Of a DNA stretch of 34,020 bases, positions 1-31,922 are shown piece by piece. Position 1 is the stretch's first letter. Every line of letters starts with the position of its first letter. Origin of the DNA: Bacillota bacterium (lineage in GTDB: Bacteria > Bacillota > SHA-98 > UBA4971). Both the position numbers and the translations under genes were made by a program. The stretch is from contig JAAZLO010000038.1 of NCBI GenBank assembly GCA_012689375.1, positions 1-34,020 of the forward strand, in the 5' to 3' direction. The notes under the pieces are model-generated. The model saw nothing but the letters and a program-made list of their open reading frames with translations, did not search any database and was not told the DNA's origin.

Positions 1-2438
1 AGAACTCTCCTTAATTCAGGTAGTTCGCTTCGTTCAGCTAAAAGATATAAAGGCTCCACATACAGGACTGAGCGTTCGATGGGGATCACCAGGAGGTTCC
101 CGCGGACTACCTTAGAACCACGCTGACTCCAAAGGGTCAAGGCTTGGGATATTTCGGGATGCTGATCTATTCTGGATTCAATTTGCATTGGTCCGTACAC
201 TAATCTGTCTTTGGGAAAGGTGTATAAAACCAATTCACCTAAGCGGGGCACGTCACATCTGGCCATCAACCACCCGATCATATTATCTTTATTTGAAGGC
301 ACAAAAGGCAGTATCAGAAGATATTCGGCAAAATCCTCCCCCGGTGTCTTCATAAATACATAGTAAGGCGATACCCCGACACGATCCTGTCCGTATACTT
401 CTGTAGGGAATTCCCACATATCTCCCTTATTATAGAATGTATCAGCAGCAGTCATATGGTAAAGACAAAGGATCTCCGCCTGGATTTCAAAGAGATCTGC
501 AGGGTAGCGCAAATGAGTTTTAAGGGAATCAGGCATTGCGTCGAAAGGTTTAAATAAGTCCTTAAAAATTCCTGATAATGTTTTAACAATGGGATCTGAG
601 GAATCGAACATATAAAACGTAACGTCACCATTATATGCATCTATTACGATTTTCACTGAATTTCTTATGTAATTAAAGCCCTTATATACAGGCTGGGAAT
701 ACGGATAGAGATTGCTCACGGTATAAGCGTCCCATATCCAAAAAAGCCTGCCGCCAACTAAAACTAGGTACGGATCTTCATCATATTTGAGAAACGGTGC
801 GATTTTTTCTGTACGCCCTTTTATATCCCGGTTAAAAAGGACACGGCTTGTTGATTTAATATCCTGTGAAAACAATAGTTTAGAGCTCCGGAACCTAAGT
901 GCAAAGGCGATTCTCCGAATAAGGGAAGAGAGTCTGATCCCCCCTGTTCCCTCATAGGTTGCATATGCATTTGACTCCCCTTCGGGATAATCAAATTCTT
1001 TTGCCTTAGTATTGACTATTACATAATTGCAGGTTTTTTCACCAAAATAGATTTCGGGCCGGGTTACCTCGAACCCCGGATAGGGTGATCTTGGTGGGAT
1101 ATCTGAGATGATAAATTTAGGGAGACCTTCTCTGGAAACCTCGTTGGTGGGGCTCATAGCAAGACCATAACCATGGGTGTACACTAAGTGTTCGCTGACC
1201 CAAGTCCTGGCTTCCGTAGGGAGAAGGTTACAGGATAATTCTCGGGCTGATAATGCCATTTGCCTTATCCTGCCCTCTACTTGGTATCTGTCTAGATCTA
1301 TGTCGTAGAAATCATAATAGGCCCGGATTTCTTGTAACTGTCCGTAAGTTTGGCCTAGGGAACGCCAGTCCCAAACCCGTATGTTATCTATAGTATCCTT
1401 GTGGTCTTCAGTAAGCTTCTTGTACGTAATATCATGATTGACATCTAAGGATTTGACGCTTATTTTATCTAAGCCGAAAGCCTTCCGGGTAGATTTGATG
1501 TTGTATTCAATATATGGAGTTTCCCTTGATAGTTCACTGGGTTCAACTGCAAATTTTTGAACAAGACTTGGAAATATTCCTCCCAGGACAATTGAACAAG
1601 CAATGAAGACTATTACTGCAGTGGTTAAAACCCTTCTTAAACGAACAAATACACTGATAAGTACCAGGGCCCCTAAAACAATTGCAATAACGGCGAGGAT
1701 TTTAAGTACCGGAAGAAGCGCGTGAACATCAGTGAATCCTGCCCCGAATACCACTCCCCTTGTGGAATATGACAAAGTGAATCCCTGGAGCCTATAACCC
1801 CAAGCCTTAATAAATAAGGCTGCCGCTGCCAAAAAACTTAAATGGAATCTCGCAATAGGTTCACCTTCGCCTGTCCACAAACTTTTTATGAGGAGGGAAC
1901 CTGAAAATATGTAAAGAACGAGACTCCCGGTAAAGCCTATAATTAAAATGGAAATTATTAACCTATAGATAGCATGGTAGAACGGTAGGGAAAATAAATA
2001 AAATCCGATATCCATATTGAATAGGGGATCAGAGATACCTGCGGTAGCCCGGTTTAAAAAAGCCTGCACTGTCATCCACTGGAGAGATGCAAAATACCCT
2101 GCAATTGCTGAGGTTACAACAGTTAAAACTAAGAACATACGGCGGATGGTTCCTGAAAATTGTTCAGGTAGAATGTGGGGAAAGTAATCCCATATCCCGC
2201 TAAGCTTTCCTATTCTTCTAGCAGCGATACTAAAATTTGCAAATAAGAATAAGAAGACTGCTACAAAAACGGAAACTCCTATAACTACTTTAGATACAAT
2301 GGGAATCACGAATGCATCTAGGTACCCAAGGTTTTTAAACCATAAAATATCAGTAATAATACCTGCAATATAACGGGAACTGAAAACCACAATGGCCAAT
2401 ATTATAACGACGATAATAGACCAAACCCGTTTGAACAT
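1..2438 (-). CDS. UPF0182 family multi-pass membrane protein (3' end cut by window edge)
   Basis: The minus frame beginning at the ATG at 2438-2436 was in frame at the three points I translated: the N-terminus, about 1150-1200 and the window edge. It gives about 812 codons of a family usually near 900 residues, so roughly the last tenth is missing. The N-terminus is a hydrophobic helix followed by the family-typical LWFKNLGYL, with further membrane segments over about the first 300 residues. Around 1150-1200 it encodes HLVYTHGYGLAMSPTN, a hallmark of the large C-terminal domain, and the sequence leaves the window in VEPLYLLAERSELPELRRV, also typical. GGGGTGA just upstream is the ribosome binding site. 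The family has no established biochemical function. It lies 69 bp after a small ORF and could be the last gene of the radical-SAM operon or have its own promoter. Family assignment is confident, role unknown. Confidence 0.88.
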   Translation of the reverse strand, partial: MFKRVWSIIVVIILAIVVFSSRYIAGIITDILWFKNLGYLDAFVIPIVSKVVIGVSVFVAVFLFLFANFSIAARRIGKLSGIWDYFPHILPEQFSGTIRRMFLVLTVVTSAIAGYFASLQWMTVQAFLNRATAGISDPLFNMDIGFYLFSLPFYHAIYRLIISILIIGFTGSLVLYIFSGSLLIKSLWTGEGEPIARFHLSFLAAAALFIKAWGYRLQGFTLSYSTRGVVFGAGFTDVHALLPVLKILAVIAIVLGALVLISVFVRLRRVLTTAVIVFIACSIVLGGIFPSLVQKFAVEPSELSRETPYIEYNIKSTRKAFGLDKISVKSLDVNHDITYKKLTEDHKDTIDNIRVWDWRSLGQTYGQLQEIRAYYDFYDIDLDRYQVEGRIRQMALSARELSCNLLPTEARTWVSEHLVYTHGYGLAMSPTNEVSREGLPKFIISDIPPRSPYPGFEVTRPEIYFGEKTCNYVIVNTKAKEFDYPEGESNAYATYEGTGGIRLSSLIRRIAFALRFRSSKLLFSQDIKSTSRVLFNRDIKGRTEKIAPFLKYDEDPYLVLVGGRLFWIWDAYTVSNLYPYSQPVYKGFNYIRNSVKIVIDAYNGDVTFYMFDSSDPIVKTLSGIFKDLFKPFDAMPDSLKTHLRYPADLFEIQAEILCLYHMTAADTFYNKGDMWEFPTEVYGQDRVGVSPYYVFMKTPGEDFAEYLLILPFVPSNKDNMIGWLMARCDVPRLGELVLYTFPKDRLVYGPMQIESRIDQHPEISQALTLWSQRGSKVVRGNLLVIPIERSVLYVEPLYLLAERSELPELRRV

Positions 2439-2507
2439 CCATTTCACCCCGTTCAAGCAAGAAAGAATCTCAATTCGAATTCTTCTCTAACGGGTGGTCG
2501 ATTCCTG

Positions 2508-2705
2508 CTATTTATTAGCGCCAGCCCTTGTAAGGGTTGGATCATCTGAAGAATAGTTTAGGGCTATGTTTAGGAAATCGGTTGCATGCTGGATAAGGGT
2601 TATTTTAGAGTTAGGGGAGTGGGTTTGTTTAGCCTCCCTTGTACATATCATGCTTAGACTGAGACACATCCGCGCCAATTGGCATTCAAGGTAGTTAAAA
2701 GTCAA
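2508..2705 (-). CDS. Small hypothetical protein (65 aa), TTG start
   Basis: A 65-codon ORF starts with TTG, preceded at good spacing by GGAGGG, one of the better ribosome binding sites in the neighbourhood. It begins only 23 bp after the ABC permease stop, so it looks like part of that operon. The N-terminal third is a possible amphipathic helix with three cysteines (residues 8, 14, 21). The rest is polar, with SSDDPTLTRAGANK at the C-terminus. There is no signal peptide or membrane helix. I do not recognise the family. By position it could be an immunity or accessory protein of the peptide system, a precursor peptide, or a chance ORF; the ribosome binding site and spacing argue that it is translated. 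Confidence 0.42.
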   Translation of the reverse strand: MTFNYLECQLARMCLSLSMICTREAKQTHSPNSKITLIQHATDFLNIALNYSSDDPTLTRAGANK

Positions 2706-2728
2706 GGATTTCCCTCCAGATAGAATTT

Positions 2729-3511
2729 TTAGTAGCTCCCTAATAGGCCCTTATGTCTTGCGATACTCTCTGCTTTTGTAAAACAAAGGATTCCTAGGGT
2801 TACCCATAAACCACTTAAAACACATAGCTTCCAAAACCCCAATTTCCATGTTGAAAACGGAGCATTTCCTAATATGATTTCAATTAGTCTAATACCATGA
2901 GCAAATGGAATAACAGAACCTACAACTCCAATTATCTGTGGTAATTTATTTGGGGGAGATAAAGCTAAGGGCAACAAAGCAAGGCTGGTGAGGTTAGGAA
3001 TAAATCCTGTTCTCTTTGCTATAAGTGTTAGGGAACCTAGAAGGAAACCTATACCGAGCATCCCTATATTCATAGGAAAAACAATTGTAGGTATCAAAAC
3101 TAGGGTCCAGCTAATCCCTTGGTTTCGGGAGACGATTCCCACAACTATTAGAATAATTGGCATTATCCTAATAGTATCAGCGACGAAGCGAAATATGATA
3201 AGTGACGACAATCCAAAAGGTGCCAAATATAGTTGTTCAAGGGTCCCAAGATCTGATTCTTCCTTTACTACTCGGTGAACAATTTGGAGCCCGATAAGTG
3301 CAATAAAAACCGTAGTCAATGCTACAATTTTTTCGGGCTTGTCTATAGTAAACCCCAGGAGGCCTTTAGGGAATGAACCTTCCAATAATGACGGTACAAC
3401 TATTGCAACGGAAATTACCATAATAACCTCACAAACCGCCTGAACCGGATATGCCAAATGGTTTTTTAATCCTCTCTTTAGTTCAGCAATAAGGATGGCC
3501 ACCTTTGCCAT
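2729..3511 (-). CDS. ABC-2 type transporter permease (SkfF-like position)
   Basis: This is an integral membrane permease of an ABC exporter, about 260 residues with six hydrophobic segments in the ABC-2 arrangement. I start it at MAKVAILIAELKRGLK (ATG at 3511), which has GGCGGAG seven bases upstream and overlaps the end of the ATPase gene by 29 bp. A longer in-frame extension to 3622 would encode an Arg/Lys-rich stretch inside the ATPase gene and is unlikely. The segment VKEESDLGTLEQLYLAPFGLSSLI is the typical cytoplasmic E-x-G-T-x-E-x-L-x-x-x-P loop of ABC-2 permeases, which contacts the ATPase. With the ATPase it should form one exporter, probably of the product made by the radical SAM enzyme upstream. 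Substrate is inferred from context only. Confidence 0.85.
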   Translation of the reverse strand: MAKVAILIAELKRGLKNHLAYPVQAVCEVIMVISVAIVVPSLLEGSFPKGLLGFTIDKPEKIVALTTVFIALIGLQIVHRVVKEESDLGTLEQLYLAPFGLSSLIIFRFVADTIRIMPIILIVVGIVSRNQGISWTLVLIPTIVFPMNIGMLGIGFLLGSLTLIAKRTGFIPNLTSLALLPLALSPPNKLPQIIGVVGSVIPFAHGIRLIEIILGNAPFSTWKLGFWKLCVLSGLWVTLGILCFTKAESIARHKGLLGSY

Positions 3512-4313
3512 AGGGTTTCTCCGCCTTTCCTTTGGTTTCTTCTCCCGTAACTTCAAGGAACATATCTTCAAGCCAACATGATAATGGATTTTTATTACCT
3601 TTAATTGCATTTGTTTTATCAAATAAATCCGCTACTGAACTAATAATTACTGGTTCGCCACGCCTCAGGATACAAATCTGGTTTGCAAGTTCCTGAGCCT
3701 CATCCATCTGATGCGTAGCAATTATTACTGCACACTTATTTAATGATACAATTTCGCGGAGGAACCCTCGTATCTCTAGGCGTGCAGGAACATCAAGCCC
3801 AAAGGTGGGCTCATCCAGTACAAGCAATTTGGGCTTGGGTAATAAGGCTATAGCAAGGAGCAACCGTTGACGCATCCCACGAGATAACTCCCCTGCACGC
3901 CTGTTTAATACTTTGTGAAAATCAAGTAAATTTGCCATGGTTGTTATACGTTTTTTCAACTGCCTACCGTAAACACCCCTCAGAACACCAAAGTATTCCA
4001 AATTATCATAGGCACTTAGCCTCCAATAGATTGAGCGGGCGTCGCCTAACATTACACCCACTTCTTTTAAGGCAGTTTTACGGTTTCGTACTACATCCAC
4101 ATCATTAACTGTAATTCTCCCGGAAGTAGGAATTACGAGCCCAGCCAAAAGCTTAATTACTGTTGTCTTTCCGGAACCATTAGGCCCAAGCAGCGCTAGC
4201 GTTTCACCTTTTCGGACTTTAAAAGAAAGTCCAGCCACCCCAGTAGCCAAAGGCCTACCGCGGAAATCCTTGTATATCTTTGTTACATTTGTGAACTGTA
4301 CATATGACGTAAT
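3483..4313 (-). CDS. ABC transporter ATP-binding protein (SkfE-like position), non-ATG start
   Basis: Cytoplasmic ATPase of an ABC-2 exporter. It has Walker A (GPNGSGKTT), Q-loop region (VGVMLGD), signature LSRGMRQR, Walker B LLVLDEPTFGLD and switch His (IIATHQMDE). The first canonical start codon (TTG at 4250) lies too far in. The same frame upstream encodes VQFTNVTKIYKDFRGRP, the usual first beta strand of ABC ATPases, back to a stop at 4337. No ATG, GTG or TTG occurs in that stretch. The most plausible start is ATT at 4313, whose first base is the last base of the TAA of the CPBP gene (TAATT) and which sits just after GGGGGG. This suggests translational coupling; a sequencing frameshift is the alternative. 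The 3' end overlaps the permease gene. About 276 residues. Confidence 0.85.
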   Translation of the reverse strand: MTSYVQFTNVTKIYKDFRGRPLATGVAGLSFKVRKGETLALLGPNGSGKTTVIKLLAGLVIPTSGRITVNDVDVVRNRKTALKEVGVMLGDARSIYWRLSAYDNLEYFGVLRGVYGRQLKKRITTMANLLDFHKVLNRRAGELSRGMRQRLLLAIALLPKPKLLVLDEPTFGLDVPARLEIRGFLREIVSLNKCAVIIATHQMDEAQELANQICILRRGEPVIISSVADLFDKTNAIKGNKNPLSCWLEDMFLEVTGEETKGKAEKPYGKGGHPYC

Positions 4314-5083
4314 TATCCCCCCTTTGGTTTTTTTCTAAAATTCTTGAGCTCCCACACTCCTGATGCTTTATTCCATACAAAGCCCGCATAGTTTAGGCCA
4401 AAATGAATAATCCACCCTGGCCAAAGTGAATATGACGTTTGATTTAGCACAGAAAATGCTATCCCGAGCAACATAGGCATAACAAACGCATATAGTGGAA
4501 TTATGATATTTTTACCTCTAAAACAACGAAATGCGGGAATAAAGTGGGTGATTCCAAATAGGATTGCGGAACTAATGATACTAAAAATACTAACTAAAGA
4601 TGGCGACATTGCAAATAAACCATAGAACCAATTCCCGAAGGAAACTATTAAACCCCTGAATATAAATTCCTCCATAAAAGTCTGGGAATAAACCATAGGC
4701 AGCCCTAATACTAATCCAGTAAGTTTTGGGTATGACGCCAGGGAAAGGTAGACTCCCCCTGGGTTTATATCCCCTTTCGCTAGAACCTCTTGGATAACAG
4801 AAGTAGGATAAAGTACCACGAAGTTTGCTAATCTACCCATAAAAAATGCAATTACCCACACGAAAAACGTCGCTTTCCAGGGGCATTTAGGTACTTGTGA
4901 TAAACTGAGCCCATAAATCCGTAAGGGATCTTCCAAGCCTATAACTCCTATCAGTGCTAGCATGAAAACTACTATAAAAGGGATAACATCTATATTATTG
5001 TCATTCCCTTTACGGCTACTCCTTGCCACAAAAATCCTCACAATAAGTGACAATCCAAGACTAATGTATACAGGAATAATCAC
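4313..5083 (-). CDS. CPBP-family (CAAX/Abi) intramembrane metalloprotease, SkfC-like position
   Basis: A 256-residue multi-pass membrane protein with the CPBP/Rce1 signature. EEFIFRG in the middle gives the paired glutamates and Arg, ILFGITHF gives the first histidine, and HFGLNYAG near the C-terminus gives the second conserved His-x-x-x-Asn. About seven or eight hydrophobic segments surround these. Relatives cleave peptides within the membrane, and SkfC of the sporulation killing factor operon belongs here. It starts at GTG 5083, 6 bp after the radical SAM stop, with GAGGGATG upstream, and its stop overlaps the putative ATT start of the ATPase gene. In this context it probably removes a leader from, or cyclises, a modified peptide, or gives self-protection. 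The family call is strong and the role is inferred. Confidence 0.85.
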   Translation of the reverse strand: MIIPVYISLGLSLIVRIFVARSSRKGNDNNIDVIPFIVVFMLALIGVIGLEDPLRIYGLSLSQVPKCPWKATFFVWVIAFFMGRLANFVVLYPTSVIQEVLAKGDINPGGVYLSLASYPKLTGLVLGLPMVYSQTFMEEFIFRGLIVSFGNWFYGLFAMSPSLVSIFSIISSAILFGITHFIPAFRCFRGKNIIIPLYAFVMPMLLGIAFSVLNQTSYSLWPGWIIHFGLNYAGFVWNKASGVWELKNFRKKPKGG

Positions 5084-5089
5084 TTGGGT

Positions 5090-6448
5090 TCATCCCTCTT
5101 TTTCTATACATGACAAAATCGCGGCAATGTTATCTGAAAAAACCCTATCTTCCCGCCATTCCCAGAGGACGGCGGGAAAAACAGATTTATAGAACTTGCA
5201 GTAAGGATCTTTTGAAAATAAATCTCCGGTATGGGCAAAGGCTCTAGCGCGGCATCCGCCCCCGCAAAAGAAAGCTACATCACAACCTTGGCATTCCGGA
5301 AGGGAGGCAATGCCCGGTACCCTAGATGTTCCCTTTTTTATAATCTCTGAAATTAAATCTTTTGGCAATTCCCCTAAAACTAAATCTTCCGTATGTAATA
5401 GTGGACACGGGTAAACCTTACCGTTAGGTGCTATGCTGATAATGTTGCTCCCAGCACCACATCGTGTTTTTACAACGAGATCAACTGGTGGTTTACACTC
5501 GTTAGGCTGGGAAATACTACTTGTTCCTTGAACCCGAGGTTCCACTCTTTGTATTGCTTTTAGTGGTCTACTACATACTTTCAAAAAATGCTCCTTTAAT
5601 TCAGCTTTAGGGATTTCCATATCTCGGGCGTGGGATGCACCCCTACCTATAGGCAAAAAGAGACTGAAATGATAGTCTATACCCAGTATATTTGCTAGCT
5701 TAATAACGCCTTCAGATTCGTGGATACTGTTTCTTGTTAAAGTCTGGACAATCTCGATATTATGAACATTGGCCTGAAGAAGTGTTTTGATACCCCTGAG
5801 CGTTTTGTTGAAACTTCCATAACCTCTAATGTTATCATGGACTTGGGGATTAGCCGACTCAATACTTACCTGCACTTTTGCCATAGATTTAGATATTAAC
5901 GTTGCGTCCTCCTTGCTGATTATTGTTCCATTGGTAAGAACCGTAATCGAGGGAAACTTTCCTTTCGCGTATTCTAATACGCCTTGAAAGTTTTGATATA
6001 AAAGGGGTTCACCCCCGCTTACAATAAGATTATTAATACCTGCCTCCGCCAAAATATCAATGATTAAACGTGCGTCCTTATAGGGTAGCTCTTTATATTC
6101 CTTGCTAGCTTCACTTGCAAAATAACATAAAGGGCACATCAGGTTGCATTGGGCTGTTATATTAAAGTAGGCACGAGCAAGGCCCTTTGTATTATCAATT
6201 TTCATCAGAAACCCATTTCCCTTCAAATAGTAAAAGAGGGATCCGATGGTTTCTATCGTTCCCCCGGTCCTTCGGGCTTCATCAGCTATTAATTGTTTTA
6301 TGGGTTTCCCCTCAGGGTTTAATGCAAATTCATAGGCGTAATCTGCGAGTTTGACCCATTCGCGATTTTTAGGGTTTATAAGAACCCGTTGATCCTCATA
6401 TTTTATTATTTCAATCCCTTTCGCAATTGTGAATGTTTGGTTATACAA
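5090..6448 (-). CDS. Radical SAM/SPASM peptide-modifying enzyme with PqqD-like N-terminus (SkfB-like position)
   Basis: With the TTG start at 6448 (GGGGGGA seven bases upstream) the protein has 452 residues. Residues 1-85 look like a PqqD-type recognition domain (IAKGIEIIKYEDQRVLINP, then KLADYAYE). The radical SAM cluster motif is C101-x3-C105-x2-C108, followed by SGGEP at 144-148, which binds S-adenosylmethionine. The C-terminal SPASM domain has seven cysteines (330, 348, 386, 389, 395, 399, 417), enough for two auxiliary Fe-S clusters. Such enzymes install thioether or C-C crosslinks on ribosomal peptides. The frame is open up to GTG 6574, but that extension starts with a low-complexity AVGGRPNVGCG stretch and lacks a good ribosome binding site. 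It heads the run with CPBP, ATPase and permease. Substrate peptide not identified. Confidence 0.88.
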   Translation of the reverse strand: MYNQTFTIAKGIEIIKYEDQRVLINPKNREWVKLADYAYEFALNPEGKPIKQLIADEARRTGGTIETIGSLFYYLKGNGFLMKIDNTKGLARAYFNITAQCNLMCPLCYFASEASKEYKELPYKDARLIIDILAEAGINNLIVSGGEPLLYQNFQGVLEYAKGKFPSITVLTNGTIISKEDATLISKSMAKVQVSIESANPQVHDNIRGYGSFNKTLRGIKTLLQANVHNIEIVQTLTRNSIHESEGVIKLANILGIDYHFSLFLPIGRGASHARDMEIPKAELKEHFLKVCSRPLKAIQRVEPRVQGTSSISQPNECKPPVDLVVKTRCGAGSNIISIAPNGKVYPCPLLHTEDLVLGELPKDLISEIIKKGTSRVPGIASLPECQGCDVAFFCGGGCRARAFAHTGDLFSKDPYCKFYKSVFPAVLWEWREDRVFSDNIAAILSCIEKEG

Positions 6449-6583
6449 TATAAGTCCCCCCGAGTTAAAACTATATAATCCACCGGTATTGTCCCTGATC
6501 GAATTCTGTATAACCGTTTTCAATAAGTAGACGGCAGACCCGCAACCCACATTGGGCCTACCGCCTACCGCCACCCTGCGGTG

Positions 6584-6658
6584 TCACCCTATCGTTATGA
6601 AGTGTCCCCAGAGCTGAAAGGTAAAACAAAACCCATCAATTGCAAGATCAAGCTTCAT
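6584..6658 (-). CDS. Candidate short peptide ORF upstream of the radical SAM gene (24 aa, or 36 aa from GTG 6694)
   Basis: A 24-codon ORF begins MKLDLAIDGF and ends HFITIG, directly after GGGAGGAAG. It has a single Cys in GFCFTFQLWG and is rich in aromatic residues. The frame continues upstream to a possible GTG at 6694, adding VRQIYGKLGGRK, which contains a GG pair such as is often found at leader cleavage sites. It lies where a precursor gene would be expected (skfA precedes skfB). Against this, the ribosome binding site is very close to the ATG, there is only one Cys, and the surrounding 6580-6760 is GC-rich and hairpin-forming, so it could instead be debris of a mobile element. Treat as a hypothesis. 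Confidence 0.25.
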   Translation of the reverse strand: MKLDLAIDGFCFTFQLWGHFITIG

Positions 6659-6701
6659 CTTCCTCCCGCCAAGCTTACCGTAGATTTGGCGCACCCCCTT
6701 C

Positions 6702-6788
6702 CCCGCTTTTGCAGCGGGCCAACTTTGTGTTAGCGCCTGGGCCGGCTCAGGCCGTCTCTGGCAATTTTAGTCTAATGTATATTTACAT
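6702..6788. promoter_or_regulatory. GC-rich hairpins and a short dyad between the LuxR gene and the radical SAM operon
   Basis: Three inverted repeats lie close together. CCCGCT/AGCGGG (6702-6707 with 6713-6718) and GCCTG/CAGGC (6735-6739 with 6748-6752, around a GCCGGC core) are GC-rich. ATGTA/TACAT (6775-6779 with 6784-6788) is an AT-rich dyad of the size bound by LuxR-type dimers. No U-tract follows the hairpins on either strand, so a classical terminator is not supported. They may be a leader structure, an operator region or part of an inserted element. The rest of 6449-6867 shows no further gene that I can support beyond the short ORF described at 6584-6694. Confidence 0.3.
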
Positions 6789-6867
6789 GAATTACCATTC
6801 CCCATAGGAATGACTTTTTAGATTTAGTAAAACCATCCCCTACATTATCCGCATTTATATTTTTGAA

Positions 6868-7350
6868 TTATTCCTCAAAGCCGGATTTATAGGCATATCT
6901 TACAGCCTGCGCCCGGTTCTTTACGCGTAACTTCCTAAAAATGCTAGAAACATGACTCTTAACAGTATTGATACTAATATACATTTCATTGGCAATTTCC
7001 TTATTTTGATAACCTTTGGCTAGGAATCTCAAGACTTGGGCTTCTGTTCTAGTGAGATAAATAGATCGGTTCCCAATTTTTCTAGGAATAGTTAATGCAG
7101 ACGCCCCTCGTTGTAATTCTTGGTGAAAAGCCCCTTCATTTAGGCGATCGTTTTCCCTATTTAAAATGCAATTGGAACCGTTCTTATCAGGGGCCCTTTG
7201 TTCTCCGCAAGGAGATCCAATATCTAGGCCTGATTTTCTCATTCTAATACTCCCCAACACTTCTACGCCTTCAGGAAAAATATCAGGATCAAAGTTCGCT
7301 ACATCTGAACCTAAATCATCATGAACTAGAAATACTTTAATTTTACTCAC
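6868..7350 (-). CDS. LuxR/NarL-type HTH transcriptional regulator with degenerate N-terminus
   Basis: 160 residues. The C-terminal ~65 residues are a clear GerE/LuxR helix-turn-helix (LTRTEAQVLRFLAKGYQNKEIA, then ISINTVKSHVSSIFRKL). The N-terminus begins IKVFLVHDD, like the first strand and acidic pair of a response-regulator receiver domain. The following ~85 residues are too short and lack a recognisable phospho-acceptor Asp strand or the later Thr/Lys motifs, so this is probably not a phosphorylated two-component regulator. The GTG start has a strong GGAGGGGAG site. It lies upstream of and in the same direction as the radical SAM/CPBP/ABC operon, separated by about 420 bp, which makes it the obvious candidate regulator. 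No kinase is adjacent. Confidence 0.8.
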   Translation of the reverse strand: MSKIKVFLVHDDLGSDVANFDPDIFPEGVEVLGSIRMRKSGLDIGSPCGEQRAPDKNGSNCILNRENDRLNEGAFHQELQRGASALTIPRKIGNRSIYLTRTEAQVLRFLAKGYQNKEIANEMYISINTVKSHVSSIFRKLRVKNRAQAVRYAYKSGFEE

Positions 7351-9179: not shown

Positions 9180-9269
9180 TTGATTCCAGGCAATGTGACA
9201 GTAACCCCGTCCCCCTGTCACGGGTTGATTCCGGGCAATGTGACAGTAACCCCGTCCCCCTGTCACCCA
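9180..9269. repeat. Two tandem copies of a 45-bp palindromic intergenic repeat
   Basis: Unit 1 (9180-9224) and unit 2 (9225-9269) both begin TTGATTCC and differ at only a few positions (CCAGG versus CCGGG, and the last three bases). Each holds a core with GTGACAG at the left and CTGTCAC at the right around TAACCCCGTCCCC, so each core can fold into a 7-bp-stem hairpin. The same core recurs at 30258-30286 and 30357-30385, and a related one at 31797-31922. It lies directly upstream of the hydantoinase-like gene promoter. It resembles REP-type interspersed palindromes. Confidence 0.85.
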
Positions 9270-19058: not shown

Positions 19059-20027
19059 GTGAGTATTATAAAAGTGGAAAATCTGACAAAACGCTACGGA
19101 GATTTTGAGGCAGTTAAAGGCATCAATTTTTCAGTACACAAGGGGGAAATCTTTGGATTTCTCGGACCGAACGGCGCCGGAAAAACCACCACAATTAATA
19201 TGTTAATCGGGCTTGCCGGAATAACATCAGGCTCGGCAAAACTCCTGGGATATGATCTTACGTTCCAAGCTAAAAAAGCTCAAAAATATATAGGGATAGT
19301 CCCGGATGAAAGTAACCTTTATGAGGAATTAGATGGATTTCAAAATTTAAGTTTTTGTGCAGCGCTTTATGGTATGAAAAAATCTGAACGTATGGAAAAA
19401 GCCCATGAATTACTCCACCGATTCAACCTTGCAGATGCCGGGAACAAACCTTTCAGGGCTTATTCCAGGGGGATGAAACGGAGACTCACCATTGCAGCGG
19501 GAATAATTCATGACCCAAAAATCCTTTTCCTTGATGAGCCCACAACTGGGATTGATGTAGCAAGTGCAAGACAGATACGGGAGCTTATTCTTGATCTAAA
19601 CGCCTCAGGCACAACTGTTTTTTTAACCACCCATTATATAGAGGAAGCTGAAAGACTCTGCCATAGGATTGCCTTTATCGTTGACGGAAAGATTGTAAGA
19701 ATCGGAACTGTAAATGAACTCATGAGCGAGGCGCAGGAAGGAACAATAGTCCAATTTACACTTGATGATGCTTCGGATCCCGGGTTAAGGGAGGCACTTC
19801 GTCATAGGTTCCCTGAATTTGAAGAAGAATTTATATCCGGTAACATAGTCAGAATTCATTCCCCGTCCCCTACCGGACTTATGGAATTCATGAAATTCTT
19901 TGATGAGAGAAAGCTCAATATTTATGAAGCGAAAATCATAAGGCCGTCTTTGGAAGATGTATTTGTAAAAATTACAGGAATTGAAATTAATAAAATGGCC
20001 AAAGATAAGGAGCAGTACAAAAAATGA
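19059..20027 (+). CDS. ABC exporter ATP-binding protein (DrrA/NatA-like)
   Basis: 322 residues from GTG with AAGGTGAT upstream. Motifs: Walker A GPNGAGKTT, signature YSRGMKRRL, Walker B ILFLDEPTTGID and switch His in TTHYIEEAE. The C-terminal ~90 residues (from about GTIVQFTLDD to RPSLEDVFVKITG) form the regulatory extension seen in DrrA/NatA-type ATPases. The last four bases overlap the permease start (ATGA), so the two are translationally coupled. They form a two-gene exporter for a drug, lipid, ion or similar substrate that the sequence does not reveal. This gene is distinct from the SkfE-like ATPase at 3483-4313. Confidence 0.92.
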   Translation: MSIIKVENLTKRYGDFEAVKGINFSVHKGEIFGFLGPNGAGKTTTINMLIGLAGITSGSAKLLGYDLTFQAKKAQKYIGIVPDESNLYEELDGFQNLSFCAALYGMKKSERMEKAHELLHRFNLADAGNKPFRAYSRGMKRRLTIAAGIIHDPKILFLDEPTTGIDVASARQIRELILDLNASGTTVFLTTHYIEEAERLCHRIAFIVDGKIVRIGTVNELMSEAQEGTIVQFTLDDASDPGLREALRHRFPEFEEEFISGNIVRIHSPSPTGLMEFMKFFDERKLNIYEAKIIRPSLEDVFVKITGIEINKMAKDKEQYKK

Positions 20028-20758
20028 GGTCTTGTACAGCCTTTAAGAATATCCTAATAAAGGATATAAAAACTTATTATATTAAACCCCCTAACATAAG
20101 CTGGGGAATTATTTTCCCCATTGCGTGGACTGCCATGTTTTTTGTAAAATCCCAAACCCCCATAGATATCCGGGCTATTTTACCGGGCGTGATGTCCATG
20201 TCAATTTTATTCGGGACTACGTCAATGCTGGCTGTAACCATTACATTCGAAAGGCGCCATAGATCCTTCGAAAGACTTCTAGTGGCACCTATAGAGCTTA
20301 GTTCATTAATGCTAGCGAAGACTCTGGGAGCCATACTATTTGGTATAGCCAATGCATCAGTCCCTGTTATCTTCGCATCGTTCCTTATAAGTCTTTCAGA
20401 TATTAATTGGGTTTTGGCATTTATCAGTGTTGTGCTGATGGCAACCACTTCAGCTTTTCTTGGCTTATTTATTGCCGTCGCAGTCAGTGAAGTATTTGAA
20501 GCCCAAACGTTTTCGAATTTCTTTAGATTTCCTATGATATTCCTGTGTGGATTATTCATCCCTGTAAGCGATTTGCCAAGAATAATAAGGCCTTTATCCT
20601 ACATAATTCCTCTTACATACGGTGCAGATCTCCTTAAGCTTTCCATAAATAATGACGGTCATATATTTCCGATCCTGAGTCTGGTAATCCTTGTTACCTT
20701 TGGTGTTGTGCTGTTTAGTCTAAGCCTGAAAAACGTGAAGCGTAAGTGGATATATTGA
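20024..20758 (+). CDS. ABC-2 type exporter permease (DrrB/NodJ-like)
   Basis: 244 residues with about six membrane helices. The loop ITFERRHRSFERLLVAPIEL matches the E-R-x(4)-E-R-L-x-x-x-P contact region of ABC-2 permeases, and the C-terminal part has FFRFPMIFLCGLFIPVSDLPR and PLTYGADLLK, typical of the DrrB/NodJ family. It starts inside the last codons of the ATPase gene and ends 10 bp before the convergent tRNA gene. Together with the ATPase it makes a complete exporter. Confidence 0.9.
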   Translation: MRSCTAFKNILIKDIKTYYIKPPNISWGIIFPIAWTAMFFVKSQTPIDIRAILPGVMSMSILFGTTSMLAVTITFERRHRSFERLLVAPIELSSLMLAKTLGAILFGIANASVPVIFASFLISLSDINWVLAFISVVLMATTSAFLGLFIAVAVSEVFEAQTFSNFFRFPMIFLCGLFIPVSDLPRIIRPLSYIIPLTYGADLLKLSINNDGHIFPILSLVILVTFGVVLFSLSLKNVKRKWIY

Positions 20759-31796: not shown

Positions 31797-31826
31797 GGGT
31801 GACAGAGGGACGGGGTACCTGACACA
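31797..31826. repeat. 30-bp inverted copy of the GTGACAGAGGGACGG-type repeat
   Basis: This is the exact reverse complement of the last 30 bases of the tandem unit at 31849-31878. With a 22-base loop it can form a 30-bp perfect hairpin between the S-layer-homology gene and the M42 genes. Confidence 0.9.
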
Positions 31827-31834
31827 TTGTAGCA

Positions 31835-31922
31835 TTGATCGGTGTTAGTGTGTCAGGTACCCCGTCCCTCTGTCACCCTTGATCGGTGTTAGTGTGTCAG
31901 GTACCCCGTCCCTCTGTCACCC
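31835..31922. repeat. Two perfect tandem copies of a 44-bp palindromic repeat
   Basis: Units 31835-31878 and 31879-31922 are identical, each beginning TTGATCGGTGTTAG and ending CCCTCTGTCACCC. The core GTGTCAGGTACCCCGTCCC... is related to the repeats at 9180-9269 and 30258-30385. The second unit overlaps the 3' end of the M42 peptidase gene. Confidence 0.9.

What the first reader, a model, noticed from the sequence alone, without database searches (positions are those of the whole stretch)
2508..7350. Sporulation-killing-factor-like peptide modification and export locus with its own LuxR regulator
Seen: radical SAM/SPASM enzyme with PqqD-like N-terminus, CPBP membrane protease, ABC ATPase and ABC-2 permease, back to back on one strand, with a LuxR-type gene upstream. 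Known: skfB-skfC-skfE-skfF of Bacillus subtilis have the same order and families. Inference: this locus makes, processes and exports a crosslinked peptide, possibly a cannibalism or signalling factor. No Cys-rich precursor like SkfA is evident, and the regulator differs, so the product class may be new.
Basis: partly seen in the sequence, partly recalled or inferred. Interest (0 to 1): 0.75.

Follow-up and report, generated by a model that had tools for sequence, protein, structure and literature searches.

The report
Conserved tiny peptide with radical-SAM maturase
Two little-known groups of mostly spore-forming bacteria carry, in nearly every sequenced genome, a 33-residue peptide gene that is not in the family databases searched, always followed by an enzyme of the kind that cross-links peptides and usually a membrane protease; it looks like an inherited signal or cell-surface factor rather than a weapon, but its product has never been seen.

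Summary
Between the LuxR-type gene and the radical SAM gene lies a 33-codon ORF (6685-6584, minus strand), IYGKLGGRKMKLDLAIDGFCFTFQLWGHFITIG, found at the same place in all 17 genomes of the class and in 11 of 12 of a second class. It is always 33 aa, under strong purifying selection, with G7, C20, F23, W26, T31 and C-terminal G33 invariant in the aligned set, and is absent from Pfam and NCBIfam. LuxR-peptide-radical SAM keep this order in every locus, with CPBP next wherever found; the ABC transporter is lost in several. A 23-bp box lies 19 bp before the peptide's -10 hexamer in 24 of 25 loci.

The enzyme is a SPASM peptide maturase with an RRE-like N-terminus, but fails the SkfB, AlbA, SCIFF and anSME cut-offs, and the peptide has one Cys. 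Near-universality, vertical inheritance, slow evolution and retention in a family without detectable Spo0A argue against a cannibalism toxin. Best reading: a radical-SAM-modified, CPBP-processed peptide acting as a conserved signal or envelope factor. Modification, processing and function are inferred, not shown.

The parts
6868..7350 (-). LuxR/NarL-type (GerE HTH) regulator, 160 aa, variable N-terminal part that is not a full receiver domain
   Evidence: PF00196 4e-21; HTH conserved directly upstream of the peptide in both classes
6795..6817 (-). Candidate operator box AAAGTCATTCCTATGGGGAATGG; LuxR binding is an inference
   Evidence: Conserved box at constant distance from the -10 in 25 loci; only copy in the own genome with up to 3 mismatches
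6769..6774 (-). Candidate -10 hexamer TAGACT of the peptide promoter
   Evidence: TAGACT/TATAAT/TATGAT type hexamer 19 bp after the 24-bp box in 24 of 25 loci, 20 bp in one
6693..6704 (-). Shine-Dalgarno region (AAGGGGGTG; AAGGAGGTG in relatives)
6584..6685 (-). Candidate precursor peptide gene, 33 codons plus stop. The first codon is ATC here, ATG or GTG in all relatives; GTG at 6694 is an in-frame alternative
   Evidence: Same place in 17/17 class genomes and 11/12 of a second class; 3-base periodicity confined to the ORF; dN about 0.11 against dS about 1.4 or saturated
6532..6565 (-). Hairpin-forming sequence after the peptide stop, conserved at DNA level in the genus; role unknown
5090..6448 (-). 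Radical SAM/SPASM enzyme, 452 aa, RRE-like N-terminus, CxxxCxxC plus seven SPASM Cys
4313..5083 (-). CPBP (Rce1/CAAX type) intramembrane glutamic protease with intact EExxxR, FxxxH and HxxxN motifs
   Evidence: PF02517 5e-10; motifs kept in both classes
3483..4310 (-). ABC transporter ATPase; the conserved reading frame begins near 4310, perhaps at an ACG codon
2729..3511 (-). ABC-2 type permease, 260 aa
2508..2705 (-). Small ORF (65 aa, TTG start, GGAGGG SD) conserved only in the genus; possibly an accessory or immunity protein
   Evidence: about 50% identity in four sister genomes; no Pfam or NCBIfam match
3..2456 (-). Large membrane protein of the UPF0182 type (family name from memory), conserved downstream neighbour in families f1 and f3; not a core part

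Best explanation
The locus encodes a previously unlisted RiPP-like system. The LuxR-type protein activates the promoter of a 33-aa peptide gene from a box centred about 42 bp upstream of the likely transcript start. The radical SAM/SPASM enzyme binds the basic N-terminal part of the peptide through its RRE-like domain and modifies the C-terminal half, most likely at Cys20 (thioether) and/or around Phe23/Trp26. The CPBP protease then cleaves the modified peptide in or at the membrane. The product leaves through the adjacent ABC transporter where there is one, and otherwise through CPBP or another exporter. Because the peptide hardly varies and is inherited vertically as a single-copy gene, its most likely role is a conserved intercellular or envelope signal, not a toxin. 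Shown: genes, order, conservation, purifying selection, conserved box, fold class of the enzyme. Inferred: modification, cleavage, export, regulation by this LuxR protein and function.
For: Peptide ORF at the same place in 17/17 genomes of the class and, in a diverged form, in 11/12 of a second class; the one miss is a 72%-complete genome. Constant length of 33 aa; C20, F23, W26, T31 and G33 invariant in 22 aligned sequences. Coding periodicity inside the ORF only. LuxR-peptide-radical SAM in all 28 loci, CPBP next wherever the contig reaches and a match is detectable. Full radical SAM and SPASM cysteines in both classes. RRE-like N-terminus; top folds are CteB, SuiB and SkfB, all peptide maturases. 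Intact CPBP catalytic motifs. Fixed box-to-promoter geometry, unique in the genome. No match in plasmid or phage collections.
Against: No product has been observed. The peptide has only one Cys and no obvious leader/core boundary. The window copy begins with ATC instead of ATG/GTG. The ABC genes are missing from the locus in at least four class members and were not found next to CPBP in the second class, so export is unclear. CPBP was not detected in one f38 locus (L085). LuxR binding to the box is untested, the box has only weak dyad symmetry, and it is not recognisable in f38.
Confidence: 0.6

Rival explanations
1. A sporulation-killing (cannibalism) or antibacterial sactipeptide system like SKF: the modified peptide kills siblings or competitors, and the ABC pair exports it and gives immunity.
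For: Same gene families and order as skfA-B-C-E-F (skf roles in PMC8172795); most members have Spo0A.
Against: Module universal and single-copy in two classes; peptide nearly invariant, not diversifying; ABC pair lost while peptide, enzyme and protease stay; kept in f38, where Spo0A is not detected in three genomes, one of them 98% complete; enzyme scores 68 bits or less against the SkfB model (cut-off 300).
Confidence: 0.12
2. A small-molecule redox cofactor precursor, as PqqA or MftA: the peptide is trimmed to a few modified residues that serve enzymes in the cell.
For: Very conserved short single-copy peptide; the enzyme scores well, though below cut-off, against the mycofactocin maturase (125-142 bits, cut-off 265); 'IDGxC' resembles the MftA core motif (from memory).
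Against: A membrane CPBP protease and an ABC exporter fit a secreted product; no adjacent dehydrogenase, cytosolic peptidase or further cofactor enzymes; conservation spans the whole 33 aa including T31 and G33.
Confidence: 0.13
3. A regulatory or structural small membrane protein: the radical SAM enzyme modifies it (for example one epimerised residue or one cross-link) so that it inserts in the envelope; CPBP is its releasing or quality-control protease, and nothing is secreted.
For: Alternating hydrophobic pattern and predicted beta strands (low confidence); ABC genes not essential.
Against: No transmembrane-length hydrophobic helix; the ABC transporter is in the operon in most class members.
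Confidence: 0.15

Closest known systems
skf operon (sporulation killing factor) of Bacillus subtilis
   Same: Order precursor, radical SAM enzyme, CPBP-type protease, ABC ATPase, ABC permease; RRE-like N-terminus; SkfB is among the best structure matches by sequence and fold
   Different: Peptide of 33 aa with one Cys and no resemblance to SkfA; full SPASM cysteine set instead of the SkfB twitch domain; SkfB model cut-off not met; LuxR regulator; no SkfG/SkfH; ABC dispensable; near-universal in two classes and kept where Spo0A is not detected
SCIFF peptide and its maturase (CteB; ranthipeptide)
   Same: Short, highly conserved, widely inherited peptide with an RRE-SPASM maturase; CteB is the best PDB match
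   Different: SCIFF has six Cys in about 45 residues, this peptide one; SCIFF maturase cut-off not met (76 against 425 bits); CPBP and LuxR partners here
Epipeptide system EpeXEPAB (YydFGHIJ)
   Same: Radical SAM enzyme, intramembrane protease and ABC transporter acting on a small peptide
   Different: EpeP is an M50 metalloprotease (PMC10885120), here a glutamic CPBP protease; EpeE folds rank well below CteB, SuiB and SkfB; different peptide
StsB family sactipeptide maturases
   Same: Best NCBIfam score of the window enzyme (153 bits)
   Different: Far below the curated cut-off of 625
Mycofactocin precursor and maturase (MftA/MftC)
   Same: Conserved short peptide with an IDGxC motif (from memory) and a related SPASM enzyme
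   Different: Cut-off not met; no mycofactocin partner genes nearby; membrane protease and exporter instead

Membership tests
Sporulation killing factor (skf) | Gene order precursor, radical SAM, CPBP protease, ABC ATPase, ABC permease | tested here: met
   (in the window; the ABC pair is missing in some relatives)
Sporulation killing factor (skf) | Radical SAM protein scores above the SkfB model cut-off | tested here: not met
   TIGR04403: 68.3 and 64.8 bits for two relatives, cut-off 300; SkfB not among the 25 best models for the window protein
Sporulation killing factor (skf) | SkfA-like precursor with several Cys (Cys4-Met12 thioether, Cys1-Cys16 disulfide) | tested here: not met
   One Cys in a 33-aa peptide; SKF chemistry from PMC8172795
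Sporulation killing factor (skf) | Made under Spo0A control as a cannibalism toxin | tested here: inconclusive
   Spo0A in 17/17 and 9/12 genomes, but none detected in f38, which keeps the module; activity not testable
RiPP modified by a radical SAM/SPASM enzyme | Small conserved precursor gene next to the enzyme | tested here: met
RiPP modified by a radical SAM/SPASM enzyme | RRE-type peptide-binding domain on the enzyme | tested here: inconclusive
   AlphaFold N-terminus b3-a3 and full-length matches to CteB, SuiB and SkfB; no Pfam PqqD match
RiPP modified by a radical SAM/SPASM enzyme | CxxxCxxC and complete SPASM cysteines | tested here: met
RiPP modified by a radical SAM/SPASM enzyme | Modified mature peptide | not testable with these tools
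   needs mass spectrometry
SCIFF / ranthipeptide | Six-Cys precursor and maturase above TIGR03974 cut-off | tested here: not met
   One Cys; 76 bits against 425
Anaerobic sulfatase maturase (anSME) | Above TIGR03942 cut-off | tested here: not met
   79 bits against 349
AlbA (subtilosin) maturase | Above NF012164 cut-off | tested here: not met
   80 bits against 850
Mycofactocin maturase | Above TIGR03962 cut-off | tested here: not met
   125-142 bits against 265

The most novel reading that the evidence does not exclude
A family-level new modified peptide, near-universal in two bacterial classes, that acts as a conserved pheromone or envelope factor under a dedicated LuxR regulator, with a new cross-link around the C20-F23-W26 core.
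Probability: 0.4. Interest if true: 0.8.

Novelty: new variant of a known kind. Interest (0 to 1): 0.62.

Why it matters
Most radical-SAM peptide systems known are patchy and fast-evolving. One that is kept by nearly every member of two classes, with a precursor absent from the family databases searched, suggests a basic function in organisms that can dominate biogas reactors (one carrier, AS02xzSISU_21, reached 32% abundance in an Avicel-fed reactor, PMC7038595). The named peptide, enzyme and protease make the question of what is made, and what for, directly testable.

Tried and rejected
Known riboswitch or other RNA in the conserved leader: no Rfam match of substance; the single-strand fold is not exceptional (z -1.2) and there is no covariation. 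Small ORF 2705-2508 as the precursor: conserved only in the genus and downstream of the operon. Mobile or phage origin: peptide absent from the plasmid and phage collections, locus syntenic. Defence system: only generic superfamily matches in PADLOC. Relatives in viral contigs by the single-protein query: none. First genome-contig scan with the single protein found nothing; the second with the peptide alignment found only same-class genomes, because its patterns were class-specific. Wider spread in the phylum: the extra weak hits G254, G304, G373 and G246 (E 0.004-0.01) are partial and judged chance. Perfect palindromic operator: only weak dyad symmetry was found. Published description: no paper in the held library was found by peptide motif or by gene combination. 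AlphaFold of the peptide alone: low confidence (pLDDT 64), not used as evidence.

Full report
Observation. The window lies in a 1.83-Mb, 140-contig assembly of 96% completeness.

The missing precursor. Relatives were taken from all 16 other genomes held for the class; each has exactly one match to the enzyme above the threshold used, and it lies at this locus. The gap between the LuxR and radical SAM genes, read in three frames, holds one ORF conserved in every genome: in the window IYGKLGGRKMKLDLAIDGFCFTFQLWGHFITIG (6685-6584), in sisters MYGKLGGKKMRFDLAIDGFCFTFRLWGHRITIG and the like. All copies have 33 codons and a Shine-Dalgarno sequence (AAGGAGGTG in many) just before ATG or GTG; the window alone has ATC. 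Nucleotide diversity by codon position is 0.15-0.21/0.05-0.21/0.44-0.52 in the three thirds of the ORF and flat at about 0.4-0.7 in the flanks. Median dN is 0.11 and median dS 1.45 where dS is finite; half of the pairs are saturated. This is a real, slowly evolving gene.

Spread. A profile of the peptide finds it in 16 of 16 class members sampled, plus the seventeenth (G009, locus L027/L042), and in 11 of 12 genomes of a second class; the twelfth is 72% complete. The remaining genomes of the 398 sampled from the phylum gave only weak partial hits. In all 11 second-class loci the LuxR HTH, the peptide and the radical SAM gene follow in the same order and strand; CPBP follows where the contig allows, except that no match was detected in L085. 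Across 22 aligned peptides from both classes G7, C20, F23, W26, T31 and C-terminal G33 do not vary. Neither Pfam nor NCBIfam has a family for it. No match was found in plasmid or phage collections.

What is core. LuxR-peptide-radical SAM-CPBP is core. The ABC pair is adjacent in 11 class loci, absent in four (L031, L032, L033, L036) and cut off by a contig end in two; it was not found next to CPBP in the second class, where obg and nadD follow in several genomes, in one case after a gene that resembles spo0B by eye. UPF0182 follows in families f1 and f3 only.

Promoter. A box AARTCRYCCNNTNNGGGNAATGG lies 19 bp before a -10 hexamer (TAGACT, TATAAT, TATGAT) in 24 of 25 loci of both classes, 20 bp in one (the automatic -10 choice picked other hexamers in some genus members, where the fixed-position hexamer is TAGACT or, in L040, TAATAT). 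Its centre is about 42 bp before the expected start of transcription, the usual place for a LuxR-type activator. It occurs once in the own genome at up to three mismatches. It was not recognised in the three f38 loci. That this LuxR protein binds it is an inference.

Enzyme. CxxxCxxC and the seven SPASM cysteines are kept in both classes. AlphaFold (pLDDT 81.5, 11 sequences) gives an N-terminal b3-a3 unit as in RRE domains. Foldseek ranks CteB, SuiB and SkfB first, and sequence search ranks CteB and SkfB first. No NCBIfam equivalog cut-off is reached: StsB 153 of 625, mycofactocin 125 of 265, SCIFF 76 of 425, AlbA 80 of 850, anSME 79 of 349, SkfB 68 of 300 in a relative. It is thus a peptide-maturase type of its own, not an anSME.

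Function. The skf-like order suggested a killing factor, but a cannibalism toxin should be patchy, diversifying and tied to Spo0A. Here the peptide is near-universal, nearly invariant and vertically inherited, and it stays in family f38, in which no Spo0A was found in three genomes, one 98% complete. A conserved signal or envelope factor fits better; a cofactor precursor is a serious rival. Everything beyond gene content, conservation and fold class is inference.

Limits. Genomes are mostly metagenome-assembled and unnamed; the named ones are Bacillota bins, one from a biogas study. Other phyla were reached only by one pattern scan that was specific to this class. The ATC start of the window copy may be a sequencing error or a true weak start.

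Noticed in passing
window 4310-4290 (-): The ABC ATPase frame is conserved upstream of any ATG/GTG/TTG; across the genus and in L034 only an ACG after a G-rich SD lines up. The radical SAM gene starts with TTG, CTG or ATG in different sisters, and the peptide with ATC in the window. Unusual starts cluster in this operon.
   Followed up: partly
window 6775-6686 (-): The leader of the peptide mRNA holds an almost invariant CCAGAGRCGACCTGAGCCGGCCCAGGC in family f1 and a hairpin before the SD; no Rfam family, no covariation.
   Followed up: partly
window 2508-2705 (-): 65-aa ORF with two conserved Cys, found only in the genus, between the permease and UPF0182 genes; no known family.
   Followed up: partly
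window 9195-9266 and 31799-31920: Five copies of a 27-bp imperfect palindrome GTGWCAGGNACCCCGTCCCYCTGTCAC in two intergenic clusters, none expected by chance; looks like a REP-type element.
   Followed up: partly
L083 5212-6660, also L084 and L085: A second, different radical SAM gene lies just upstream of the LuxR gene in family f38 of the second class.
   Followed up: no
L083, L089, L090, L092 downstream of CPBP: In the second class the module sits near obg-nadD, in L090 with a spo0B-like gene between, by reading the translations.
   Followed up: no
window 19059-20758 (+): A second ABC ATPase and ABC-2 permease pair of the DrrAB type next to tRNA-Leu, separate from this operon.
   Followed up: no
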